Positions 3,701 to 56,100 of a DNA stretch of 64,000 nucleotides are shown here, in pieces. Under the pieces are notes generated by a model, which was not told the DNA's origin, did not search any database, and saw only the letters and a program-made list of their open reading frames with translations. The number at the start of each line of letters is the position of its first letter. The first letter of the stretch is position 1. The translations under genes and the position numbers were made by a program. The stretch is from Chrysomallon squamiferum (taxonomy: Eukaryota; Mollusca; Gastropoda; Neomphalida; Peltospiridae), in contig CM022676.1 of the NCBI GenBank assembly GCA_012295275.1, positions 11,797,660 through 11,861,659 on the forward strand, written 5' to 3'.

Positions 3701-6700
3701 AGCAACCTTCACCTTGTGTTCTTCCTTCTGTTCCTGTATTCTGTTCCGAAGTTTCTTCAAAATCATTTCTGAAACAAAACAAAATCTTGAAACATTTAAT
3801 ACAAACACTTTTAATGTTATAAAAAAAATATATTTAAAAAAAAATAACAATAAATGAAATTGTAGAAATAGAGAAGATTTTAACTTCTTTTAGTTTTTTA
3901 AGCATCATATGCAAAAAATAATCAAAGAAAACATGAACTGTGAACATAATAAAACCAGTTTGAAAACAATGTTAGAAATGTAATTTAATAAAACCAGTTT
4001 TGGAAACAATGGATAAATATCTTAAGTCAAGGTATTATGGGAAATAAACAGCAAACGTTTTCTTTGCAGAATTTCAGAATCATAAACAGATGTCAAAATC
4101 GTGATGGATATAATAAAACTATTAAAAAAAAGTTTTGTCTCCAGGTAAATGCCTGGTTTGGAGAGGTGTTTGGATTACTGAGGTATTTACATTTAAATAC
4201 TTGATAATCTATACAACCACGGATAGTTTGGTTTTGTGAATTCTGGTTTAGTGTGGATCTTGTTTAGAGAAGTTTCTCTGTATTAGAATGAAGTTTCTCT
4301 GTATTAGAATGTGTTGTGAAGTGTATTCACTGACTGGTCACTTTGTTCAGTGACAGAATACCTTGTTTTGTCTCCTGAGTTCTTGCTGTTTCCTCATTCT
4401 TGTCACTCAGCTGTGACTGATGTTCATGGTCTGCTGACGACACTGAGGCATTCTGGGAATCTTCAGAAGATGGTGTGCTGGGTATGGGATTCAGATCCAA
4501 TGTCAACTCAAGGTCATCTTTATTTTCTGAAAAGTGTAAAACATCTGTCAATTTTACCACCATCTTGTACTTTTTAATTTTGTTGTGATGTCACCACTTA
4601 CTACTGATAAACAAATGTAAAAATTAACTGTGTTTTTTTTTATAAAAATTCACTTAGTGTAAACCACTTGAGTCATGTTAGGAAGTAAGTAAAAACTCAG
4701 TGTATGCTATGCAGTGCAATGAAAGATGAATGTAAGAAAACACTGTAAACAAAGGAGTAAACACTGTAAACAAAGTAGTAAACACTGTAAACAAAGGAGT
4801 AAACACTGTAAACAAAGGAGTAAACACTGTAAACAAAGGAGTAAACACTGTAAACAAAGTAGTAAACACTGTAAACAAAGCAGTAAACACTGACCAAGGT
4901 AAAGTTTTTCAAATGCGTGCTCCATGTCTGTCTGCTTTTCAGCTTTCTCCTCAATACGTCTGTTTGGTGGAATAAAAACTTGTTTCTGAAACAGTAACAC
5001 AGACAGTGGAATAACAACACAGACAGTGAAACAATAACACAATAATGTGAAACAATAACAGATACAGTGAAACAACTTGAGAAGCACTGTTTGTTATCTT
5101 ATTGCTAACAACACATTTTAAACTTCATTCTTCTATGTGCATGTTTTTGAAATTCTAATTCTGTATATTTGTATTTTTAAAACTATTAACAGTGGTTTTT
5201 AAGTGAAATTTGAAGACATTACTGAGATATTTGTACATTGATTTATTGTGTGTGTGAGTATATATATGTGTGCCATTCTGTTCCACAACCTTTTGCCATC
5301 TGAGTGAGCTTTATGAATCCATCCTCCCAGTGTGATGAACTGATCTAAACAGTAACAACTGTAGTTCCATGCCAATACTTCTATGTCTGTGTTTTCAGAT
5401 CTGAATATATATTGTAAATGGCTTGTCTGTTCAACTGTGTATTTTGTGTCAGTGTGAGTTCCTATGTTATCTAACTGGTTTGAAAATCTCTGTTATGAGT
5501 TTACTAAAATTACACATATTTAAAAACAGACAGACAGACAAACAGACAACTGACTGGTATATCTGCTACAATTTCCTGTCTTCGTCTACGATCTGCTCTC
5601 TGCATGAAACTCAAATCTTCCAACATCGCCTCATACTCCTGTAAAAAACATAGACTTTTATTATCTTTAAATTATATCTTACTCCTGTAAAAAACATAAA
5701 CTTTTATTATCTTTAAATTATATCTTACTCCTGTAAAAAACATAGACTTTTATTATCTTTAAATTATATCTTACTCCTGTAAAAAACAAAAACTTTTATT
5801 ATCTTTAAATTATATCTTACTCCTGTAAAAAACATAGATTTTTATTATTCCTTACTCCTGTAAAATACATAGACTTTTATTATTTCTTACTCCTGTAAAA
5901 TACATAGACTTTTATTATTCCTTACTCCTGTAAAAACATAGACTTTTATTATCTTTAAATTATACTACTTTAGAAAAAAAAAGAAAAAAGAATTACACGT
6001 AAATTAAATATTACATACTACTTGTATAAGACACACACTGCTAACATTATTTTTAAATTATATCTTATACACACACACAATGTTAATATTACATGTAAAT
6101 TATATATATATAAGATTACATGACATGCTGTATGACACATGAAAACTACTAACAGAAGTGAACAAAGAGACTGTGTGTGAGGGTAACGTTACTAACAGAA
6201 GTGAACAAAGAGACTGTGAGAGTAACGTTACTAACAGAAGTGAACAAAGAGACTGTGTATGAAGGTTACGTTACTAACAGAATTGAACAAAGAGACTGTG
6301 TGAGAGTTACGTTACTAACAGAATTGAACAAAGAGACTGTGGGAGAGTTACGTTACTAACAGAATTGAACAAAGAGTCTGTGTGAGAGTTACATTACTAA
6401 CAGAATTGAACAAAGAGACTGTGTGAGAGTTACGTACGTGTTTCAACTGTTCTTTCTTGATCGCCTCCTGCCCGCGAATCTTTGCTCGGACGATGGCTTC
6501 TTCAAACGATTTTTTCTTTGCAGCAATTTTCTCTTTGATCCTCTCATCCTCCTCTTCAGCAGCAGAAATCCCATCTACCTAAAAACACATTATTATTAGT
6601 TTCTTAATGAATTATTGATATTAGTAGAAACGGTTAGTTCTTGTGTAATAATCAAGTTCTATAACTTTCGTTATAAACGTGATATGTGTACTCAGTGTTA

Positions 6701-53189: not shown

Positions 53190-56100
53190 TCAGTTCTGAC
53201 TAGAGTTGTCTTTCTTGTTGATGTTGATGTTGTTGTAACGTAGCAGAGCCTGGAACCAACGTTTGCAGCGTTCAAGTTCTTCAACGTTGTCAAGAGATGT
53301 GTGCACGTTCGACTGCGACCCCAAACCTGCAGAACTGTTAGCTCTCACAGTGACAGTGATCTGAAACACAAAATACAACACTGTTAGTTCTCACAGTGAC
53401 TGATCTGAAACACAAAATACAACACATTATTTATAATACTGTTAGTTCTCACAGTGACAGTGATCTGAAACACAAAATACAACACATTGTGTTTTAGATC
53501 ACTGTCACTGTAAAAACAAAATACAACACAGCCACATAAACACATGAAAAAAAAAAATTGCTAGCTGCTAACTATAATTGGTGAACTCAGTGTGTTACTA
53601 TGACAACACAGTACGTTGCTATGACAACAAACAATGAACTGATGTCAATAACACATTTTTCTACTTACTGGTTCTGACCTTCCTGCGTTGTCCTTCCCAA
53701 GACCTTGACCTTCCTTCCAGCCCATCTTAGCGAGAAGTCTGTGTCCCTTGTTGTCCTCTGACAGCGGTCTGAAAGTAATCACATTCCAGTGATGTCACAG
53801 AGGAAACAGAAAACAAAAATAATAATAAAATATCTTTTTAGGTGAGATATCCCACAATGCAACATGCCACAGCCATTTTTTTTTTCTCAGCCCAGAATGC
53901 TGACAAATAGTATTTGTTGAATAATGAGAAATTTTACTTCTCTCGTCATACCCACTCTGAGATAGATATTTACTTGCCTATCTGTCCATGTATCCATCTG
54001 TCTTTCTTTCTGTCAGTATCTATGAACCTACCTAGCTACCTATGTACTGTTTTTATATTTAGCCAGTGAATGAAACTAAGTACAAAATAAAGTTTAATAT
54101 TTGCTGCTCCAAAAAAAAAAACATAATTTCATGATTTCATGTCACATCTATTTTTTTTTTAAATTAGTTTTCATTCTAGTCTAACAAAATGGCCAATACA
54201 TTCAAAATGTATTAAAACACACAAAAAATCCCAAATAAAAGGAAAAAATAACTGGGATGAAAACAAAGAAGTCCATAATAAAAGTTTTGTCTCACAATTT
54301 AACCTAACACTTTCTTTATCTGAATATTTTGACAATTGTTTTGTGAAGACTAATATTAAAAAATGACAAAAACGTCTCTGTTCATTGCTGCTAATAACGT
54401 CCTCTCTGAAACTACCCAGACTGAGTAAGACAAACCTGTCTACTGATGCGGTAGCTGCTGTTTTGGCGTGAGGGACGTCGCTGCCCACTGTCTGGCGACG
54501 CAGCTCAGCTTTGTCGACGTACGCGGGGTTGTTGATAGCTGCAGCGTTGTCGACGTACTTTGAGTTCTGGGAAGAGAAACATGCACTGTAAGTCAAGTTT
54601 ATACACTAAACTACATTCATAAAAATAAAAATAAAAATAAAAATAAAAATAAAAATAAAAATAAAAATAAAAATAAATTTAAAAATAAAAATAAAAATGA
54701 AAATAAATTTAAAAATAAAAATAAAAAAAAAAAAAAAAAAAAATTTAAAAATAAAAATAAAAATAAAAATAAAAATGAAAATAAAAATAAAAATAAAAAT
54801 AAAAATTAAATAGTGATGTCTGAAGTTGATAAAGATCTAATACAGCTGTCACTAGTTAAAACAGTTGTCACTGTCACTAGTTAAAACAGGTGTCACTGTC
54901 ACTAGTTAAAACAGGTGTCACTGTCACTAGTTAAAACAGTTGTCACTGTCACTAGTTAAAACAGTTGTGTGTCACTGTCACTAGTTAAAACAGTTGTCAC
55001 TGTCACTAGTTAAAACAGTTGTCACTGTCACTAGTTAAAACAGCAGTCACTGTCACTTACTTTCAACCCGTATTTCTTTTTTATTTCTTTCAGCTGTTCT
55101 CTCTGAGCCCGCATTTTGTCTTCTTTACTCGTGAAGAAAATTTCTAAAATAATAAACAAATGAAATAATAAACAAATAAAATAATAAACAAATGAAATAA
55201 TAAACAAATGAAATAATAAACAATTAACACTGCTAATGCATCAGAACATTATTAATGTTTATTTTACAGCTAAAGTCTGCGTGTGTGTGTGGTTATGTGT
55301 ATAGGTGTGTGCGTGGTTATATGTGTATGTGTGTATATATTTATATATACAAAAATAAAAAAAACAAAGCAATTCATTTAACATGAATAAGTAAACATTT
55401 TCAAAGTTAATGTGTGTGTGTGTGTGTGTGGTGTGTGTCTGTGTTTATTATTGATTGTTTGTTTTATTTAAACAGAGTTATCTCACCTGGTTTGTTCTGT
55501 GTGTATTATTAATTGTTTGTTTTATTTAAACAGAGTTATCTCACCTGGTTTGTTCTGTGTGTATTATTAATTGTTTGTTTTATTTAAACAGAGTTATCTC
55601 ACCTGGTTTGTTCTGTGTGTATTATTAATTGTTTGTTTTATTTAAACAGAGTTATCTCACCTGGTTTGTTCTGCTTGGCACGCTGTGACCTGACCTGGCC
55701 CGGTTCACACGCGTCACACGTGTCACTGCTGTTGTGTATATGAAGTGACACGTGTGTGTGTCCTAACTGTAGCACATCACCATGTGTCACACGCACACCC
55801 TGACTACAAAACAGAACAGTTCACTGAGTACTCGGTTCAGTTAGTGAGTCAGTCAGAGTTAGTCAGTGAGTCAGTCACAGTTAGTTCGTCAGAGTTAGTT
55901 AGTGAGTCAGTCGTCAGTATGTTAGACAGTCATCAGTTTATATGTTAGACAGTCAGTGACAATGACTTTATTATCATAAACTGTATGGTTACAGAGAAAA
56001 ATATATTACAAATATATAATAACAAAATTAAAATGCGAGTTAGTAAGTCATCAGTCACTGAATCAGTCAGTAAGTCATTAGTCAGTCAGTTATTAGTCAG

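What the first reader, a model, noticed from the sequence alone, without database searches (positions are those of the whole stretch)
4740..55660. Window-wide pattern: intronic tandem repeats are serial copies of exon-intron borders
In USP25, GPR89, AGGF1 and CEP295 many intronic arrays contain a copy of the adjoining splice site, often with 8-50 nt of true exon sequence, oriented head to tail and starting exactly at the real border. Both acceptors (24248, 27655, 28815, 35625, 53360, 5638) and donors (23434, 28345, 28910, 30026, 36504, 38252, 15524, 16464, 55661) are affected. Tandem repeats usually have no preference for exon edges. This suggests a local duplication mechanism that nucleates at splice borders, or selection that tolerates border duplications because one intact copy always remains. 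I know of no described system with this density.
Basis: partly seen in the sequence, partly recalled or inferred. Interest (0 to 1): 0.88.

Follow-up and report, generated by a model that had tools for sequence, protein, structure and literature searches.

The report
Tandem repeats that copy splice borders
In a deep-sea vent snail, many of the short tandem repeats inside genes contain extra copies of an exon's edge and its splice site, a curiosity named 'mirages' in lancelets and here found in a mollusc, on a chromosome that seems unusually rich in such repeats.

Summary
Of 37 tandem arrays in the introns of four genes, 17 run across an exon border. Such arrays are known: 'mirage' minisatellites in amphioxus. 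The host here is a peltospirid vent snail, very probably Chrysomallon squamiferum, so this is a known kind in a new phylum. The copies look like by-products of tandem duplication: the exonic part is shorter than one unit, its phase is random, and decoy GT/AG are neither protected nor destroyed. Two results go beyond that. (1) Arrays touch borders about twice as often as border-blind placement predicts (26 of 37 against 13.4, P<5e-5; robust). A thin sample of other chromosomes shows no such bias (2 of 23 against 2.05). (2) Sampled stretches of the window's chromosome hold about six times more minisatellite DNA than those elsewhere (15.8% against 2.5%; P 0.04 by stretch). Border-seeded duplication is therefore possible but unproven.

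The parts
23419..23588 (+). USP25 donor 23434 with one copy 120 bp downstream (about 14 nt of exon included)
   Evidence: sequence; copy found
23638..24271 (+). array of ~51-bp units across USP25 acceptor 24248; 24 nt of exon; 8 of 9 near copies keep AG
27492..27692 (+). 95-bp duplication across USP25 acceptor 27655; 38 nt of exon
28294..28442 (+). 74-bp duplication across USP25 donor 28345; 52 nt of exon, 98-99% identical
28734..28831 (+). 41-bp array across USP25 acceptor 28815; 17 nt of exon
28886..29050 (+). 50-bp array across USP25 donor 28910; 25 nt of exon
30001..30210 (+). 33-bp array across USP25 donor 30026; 26 nt of exon; 4 near copies, all with GT
34230..35680 (+). long compound array (30/47/77 bp) ending across USP25 acceptor 35625; 18 nt of exon by BLAST, 56 nt by one 77-bp TRF row; 17 near copies, all with AG
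35897..36429 (+).
36459..36713 (+). 163-bp duplication across USP25 donor 36504; 46 nt of exon
38220..38812 (+). array across USP25 donor 38252 with (GT)n(GA)n inside the unit; 33 nt of exon
12597..12729 (-).
15277..15548 (-). 42-bp array across GPR89 donor 15524; 25 nt of exon; 5 near copies, all with GT
16408..16495 (-). 35-bp array across GPR89 donor 16464; 32 nt of exon
5631..5952 (-). 46/35-bp array across CEP295 acceptor 5638; 8 nt of exon; 6 near copies, all with AG
53334..53530 (-). array across AGGF1 acceptor 53360; 27 nt of exon
55429..55673 (-). 58-bp array across AGGF1 donor 55661; 13 nt of exon; 3 near copies, all with GT
4735..5076 (-). two CEP295 arrays (4735-4892 and 4987-5076) that stop 1-2 nt from donor 4895 and acceptor 4985 without clear exon copies
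6147..6435 (-). 41-bp CEP295 array that stops 2 nt from donor 6438
26937..27016 (+). 42-bp USP25 array that stops 4 nt from acceptor 27021
54846..55057 (-). AGGF1 array that stops 3 nt from donor 55061

Best explanation
These are mirage-type minisatellites. A tandem duplication copies a stretch of some 30-260 bp that happens to straddle an exon edge, at a random phase (phase shown). Because the copy next to the exon body keeps the true border, the message can stay unchanged and the extra border copies fall into the intron (frame and gene structure shown; correct splicing inferred). Unequal exchange or slippage then multiplies and homogenises the unit (inferred from copy identity). Selection removes duplications that reach deeper into or across exons (inferred from the fall in array cover). 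The high count in this window follows from a minisatellite-rich stretch of one chromosome of a peltospirid snail, probably Chrysomallon squamiferum. On top of this lies a roughly twofold local excess of arrays touching exon edges, whose cause I cannot decide: extra breakage or slippage at edges, or arrays growing until stopped by the exon.
For: 17 of 37 intronic arrays cross a border, none at both ends of its intron. The exonic part is under one unit in 17 of 17 once the 35625 overlap is set to BLAST's 18 nt; the automatic list gave 56 nt there against a 47-bp unit. Phase is compatible with uniform (KS P=0.15) and unit length mod 3 is 0/1/2 in 6/3/8. Array cover over 118 borders: 1.4% at exon -60..-41, 11.4% at -10..-1, 16.1% at intron +1..+10, 22.6% at +51..+75, 17.7% at +201..+300: a gradual fall into the exon, no spike at the border. 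68 decoy copies at 18 borders: 59 keep GT/AG; identity of the two core bases is 0.89 (weighted), exonic part 0.92, intronic part 0.94. Border-spanning arrays: 17 of 118 modelled borders here, 2 of 266 weakly predicted borders on other chromosomes, in line with sampled minisatellite content of 15.8% on C12 and 2.5% elsewhere. Further examples on C12: a kinase exon at 2.2 Mb with a 50-bp unit in about six copies, about 25 nt of exon each, and an acceptor at 11.5 Mb read by eye (exon weakly predicted, no Pfam match).
Against: Border-blind placement predicts 9.5 spanning and 13.4 touching arrays in the window; 17 and 26 are seen (P 0.0024 and <5e-5). Touching stays in excess at every threshold tried and with any one gene left out (P 0.0007 or less); spanning alone loses significance without USP25 (P 0.19) or GPR89 (P 0.10). 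So pure chance placement is rejected in this window. The window was picked because a reader saw this pattern, which inflates such a test.
Confidence: 0.75

Rival explanations
1. Border-seeded duplication: exon edges, which are sharp steps in base composition, are mutational starting points for tandem duplication or slippage, so arrays are born at borders more often than inside introns.
For: 26 of 37 arrays touch a border against 13.4 expected; robust to thresholds and to leaving out any gene; with borders from a gene finder that had not seen the gene, 20 of 34 against 8.6. An array also sits on the GPR89 stop codon, another coding edge.
Against: No peak of array cover at the border; random phase of the unit; 2 of 23 arrays touch predicted borders on other chromosomes against 2.05 expected. 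That sample is weak: leave-one-gene-out, only 39 of 66 predicted acceptors and 44 of 66 predicted donors were exact, and a third array (L023) overlaps the outer edge of a predicted gene and so was not in the count. The finder's false exons inside arrays may inflate the 20 of 34.
Confidence: 0.3
2. The copies are selected for, as spare or regulatory splice sites.
For: 59 of 68 decoys keep GT/AG.
Against: GT/AG are no better kept than neighbouring bases; none of the 7 near matches at 36417 has AG; donors and acceptors are hit alike (9 and 8 of 17); unit length is not tied to the reading frame.
Confidence: 0.05
3. Assembly artefact: collapsed or over-expanded repeats.
For: The published Chrysomallon assemblies rest on nanopore reads (PMC7142155, PMC7736800, passages), where repeat copy number can be off; one amphioxus mirage was misassembled in the draft genome (PMC3087553, passage).
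Against: Copies differ by substitutions and indels, gene frames are intact, and in amphioxus RT-PCR (PMC3087553) and resequencing (PMC3902484) spoke for real structures (passages).
Confidence: 0.04
4. Early stage of intron gain by tandem duplication carrying AG/GT sites (Rogers model).
For: Most units carry a usable border, and the amphioxus authors propose this route (PMC3087553, passages).
Against: The spanning arrays lie in existing introns beside intact exons; intron positions were not compared across species, so no gain was looked for.
Confidence: 0.08

Closest known systems
Mirage minisatellites of amphioxus (Adh3, globins BflGb6 and BflGb9, troponin C, PGBD5; passages of PMC3087553 and PMC3902484)
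   Same: Tandem repeats spanning exon-intron borders, at both donors and acceptors; units of tens to about 160 bp; many but not all copies keep AG/GT; partly homogenised copies.
   Different: The reported hosts are cephalochordates; here it is a gastropod mollusc (GPR89 93% identical to Gigantopelta, 71% to Branchiostoma). Here 17 of 118 borders in four neighbouring genes are hit, and placement was measured against a border-blind null. Splicing and length polymorphism, shown in amphioxus, could not be tested.
Intron gain by tandem genomic duplication (AGGT model; e.g. potato RdRp, PMC4974935, listing and start of abstract only)
   Same: Tandem duplication that copies splice signals.
   Different: There the duplication makes a new intron (model recalled); here the copies lie in existing introns.
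Ordinary intronic minisatellites
   Same: Unit lengths, copy numbers, similar copies.
   Different: Ordinary arrays need not include a splice border; here 17 of 37 do and 26 of 37 touch one.

Membership tests
Mirage minisatellite | tandem unit includes an exon-intron border with true exon sequence | tested here: met
   17 of 37 intronic arrays, 4-52 nt of exon
Mirage minisatellite | both 5' and 3' borders of exons affected | tested here: met
   of the 17 spanning arrays, 8 are at acceptors and 9 at donors (rows, borders)
Mirage minisatellite | many, not all, copies keep AG/GT | tested here: met
   59 of 68 copies
Mirage minisatellite | regular splicing is not disturbed | not testable with these tools
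   no RNA data; only intact reading frames and homologous proteins
Mirage minisatellite | length polymorphism, somatic instability | not testable with these tools
   one assembly, no reads
Intron gain by tandem duplication | a new intron bounded by the duplicated sites | not tested
   intron positions were not compared with other species

The most novel reading that the evidence does not exclude
On one chromosome of the vent snail, tandem duplication is both far more frequent than elsewhere and biased towards exon edges, so that about one border in seven has acquired decoy splice sites. The genome then offers a matched comparison, within one nucleus, of a 'mirage chromosome' with ordinary ones, from which the mutational cause and the splicing cost of duplicated borders could be read.
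Probability: 0.25. Interest if true: 0.75.

Novelty: new member of a known kind. Interest (0 to 1): 0.52.

Why it matters
It extends mirage minisatellites from lancelets to molluscs with 18 examples in one region, suggests that exon edges tolerate duplication about as well as intron interiors do, and supplies many natural tests of how the spliceosome picks one of several near-identical sites. If the border bias and the chromosome contrast hold genome-wide, they would turn an anecdote into a measurable mutational process.

Tried and rejected
Lancelet origin: suspected because mirages are known there; rejected by the protein search. A green fluorescent protein search as a lancelet marker did not complete and was dropped once the snail match was found. 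No COX1 match in the assembly. Subtelomeric location rejected: the window lies at 11.8 Mb of an 18.9-Mb contig. 'No border preference at all', my first reading from cover alone, was dropped after the count tests. The controls are slightly looser than its border test, and fall to 10% at +150 and 6% at +200. For one search I re-entered the 37 arrays by hand with seven units (and one array end) set to the value I judged basic; the untouched list gives 17 spanning against 10.3, P=0.007, and TRF alone, untouched, gives 14 of 33 spanning and 23 of 33 touching against 8.5 and 11.8. The gene finder is imprecise; even with strong exons only and trained on the same genes, 27 of 32 acceptors and 28 of 32 donors in the window were exact. 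AGGF1 junctions 58906/58866 (39-nt gap) and 58221/58220 were left out of the border list, and acceptor 55803 was moved to 55799 to keep the frame. CEP295 exons downstream of 3053 were not modelled. Of 100 random stretches planned, 20 could be fetched; the C12 stretches and nine of the others were at round coordinates chosen by me. The chromosome contrast, P=0.001 at first, weakened to P=0.044 when eight more stretches were added, the four on C12 without arrays. C5, C13 and C11 are intermediate there (8.9, 8.3 and 11.2%, on 20,000, 20,000 and 1,859 bases), so C12 may be the top of a range rather than unique.
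Full report
What was checked. The window carries four animal genes that I modelled exon by exon: USP25 (+ strand, 23239-39457), GPR89 (- strand, 18926-11572), the first part of CEP295 (- strand, 9664-3053) and AGGF1 (- strand, 61629-53190). USP25 reads through without a stop and aligns along the whole model with the USP25-like protein of the vent snail Gigantopelta aegis, 77% identical; that protein has about 72 more residues at its N-terminus, so upstream USP25 exons are missing from my model. 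GPR89 is 93% identical to that snail's protein. The AGGF1 identity rests on OCRE, FHA and G-patch domains and on best hits named AGGF1 (residues 240-535 of the C-terminal part).

Organism. The nearest proteins are from Gigantopelta, then Haliotis; Branchiostoma is far (71% for GPR89). The window lies in an assembly of 404.6 Mb in 22 contigs, of which 404.5 Mb are in 15 large ones (my sum of the lengths printed). The Scaly-foot Snail genome has 15 linkage groups but a stated size of 444.4 Mb (PMC7142155, passages); a second assembly has 455 Mb, 16 chromosomes, 34.5% GC and 10.2% tandem repeats (PMC7736800, passages). I take Chrysomallon squamiferum as very likely, not proven.

The observation. 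All 15 named borders have a local copy, and three more were found. TRF plus self-BLAST give 37 arrays in 28 of 58 introns; 17 overlap an exon by at least 4 nt, none at both ends. Nine more end within 15 nt of a border. A strict BLAST test counts only 13 of 118 borders.

More than chance? Two measures disagree, and both are given. By cover, borders are not special: array cover rises smoothly from 1.4% at 41-60 nt inside exons to 16% just inside the intron and 18-23% further in. The strict copy test gives 11% at borders, 11-14% at intron positions 20-100 nt away, 10% at 150 and 6% at 200 nt, and 5%, 2% and 0% at 20, 40 and 60 nt inside exons. By count, arrays sit at borders too often: if each array grew from one unit dropped anywhere in the collapsed intron or across one edge, 9.5 should span and 13.4 should touch; 17 and 26 do (P 0.0024 and <5e-5, with some units set by hand). 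The untouched list gives 17 against 10.3 spanning (P 0.007). The touching excess holds for all TRF thresholds tried (P 0.0004 or less) and without any one gene (P 0.0007 or less); the spanning excess alone is not significant without USP25 or without GPR89. Count is the better measure of where arrays are born; cover also reflects how far they grew. The window was chosen by a reader who saw the pattern, so the P values are optimistic.

Elsewhere. With borders from a small gene finder, the window still shows 20 of 34 touching arrays against 8.6, while 28 loci on other chromosomes give 2 of 23 against 2.05. The finder is weak: leave-one-gene-out, 39 of 66 predicted acceptors and 44 of 66 predicted donors were exact. 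In 15 stretches of C12 chosen by coordinate, minisatellites fill 15.8% of 41.7 kb, and 9 of 15 hold any; in 29 such stretches of the 14 other large contigs, 2.5% of 203 kb, and 14 of 29 hold any (Mann-Whitney P=0.044 by stretch). By 1-kb tile, 11 of 39 against 8 of 199 exceed 20% (Fisher P=2e-5, tiles not independent). Two more border-spanning arrays were read on C12: the donor of a kinase exon at 2.2 Mb (about 25 nt of exon in a 50-bp unit), and an acceptor at 11.5 Mb, where the repeat runs on by eye to the border though TRF ends it 37 nt earlier, and the exon is weakly predicted and without Pfam match. A third array stops 4 nt before a predicted acceptor. Among five fetched C12 regions around kinase matches, only the 2.2-Mb one showed a border array.

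How it works. Shown: phase of the unit on the border compatible with random, exon part below one unit, no frame constraint (with the 35625 overlap taken from BLAST), decoy GT/AG drifting like their neighbours (59 of 68 intact; core identity 0.89, exon 0.92, intron 0.94, weighted; unweighted 0.94, 0.92, 0.94; copies were chosen by overall similarity). Inferred: tandem duplication creates the copy, the outermost copy keeps the function, unequal exchange spreads the unit, and selection removes duplications deeper in exons. The cause of the twofold excess at borders is open. A stop-codon array in GPR89 (11316-11585, overlapping the last 14 coding bases) shows that a splice site is not required.

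Known or new. Amphioxus mirages match in the three defining features that could be tested (PMC3087553 and PMC3902484, passages). The original 2002 paper (PMC117041) is not held and is known to me only through those passages and recall. Searches for mirages or border-spanning repeats in molluscs or elsewhere listed no further case that I could recognise, judged from listings, in a library of open-licence papers only. I therefore file this as a new member of a known kind, in a new phylum, at high local density.

Noticed in passing
contig G000:C12 (18.9 Mb), stretches L029-L039 and L050-L053: Minisatellite DNA fills 15.8% of sampled C12 against 2.5% of sampled stretches elsewhere; C5, C13 and C11 look intermediate on few bases.
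   Followed up: partly
window 11316-11585 (-): A 54-bp array starts inside the last codons of GPR89 and runs into the 3' UTR: the same kind of edge copying at a stop codon, without a splice site.
   Followed up: partly
window 14909-14543 (-): GPR89 intron 8 has ATATCCTT at its start, TTCCTTGAC near its end and finishes in AG: it looks like a U12-type AT-AG intron (consensus recalled).
   Followed up: no
window 1048-1434 (-): A 27-bp repeat of about 14 copies lies in an open frame (776-1495, minus strand), repeating a 9-residue unit; it may be coding or a further intronic array of CEP295.
   Followed up: no
window 24248-24257 (+): At the mirage acceptor of USP25 the model has three residues (GVI) that the Gigantopelta protein lacks; an AG nine bases downstream would give the shorter form.
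   Followed up: partly
window 43427-44427 and 48322-50743 (+): Two similar stretches of open frames encode a RING finger (Pfam, first copy only) followed by a hydrophobic, probably membrane-spanning region: they look like a local gene duplication.
   Followed up: no
window 38267-38812 (+): The USP25 donor unit at 38252 has captured long (GT)n and (GA)n runs, so microsatellites travel with the duplicated border.
   Followed up: no
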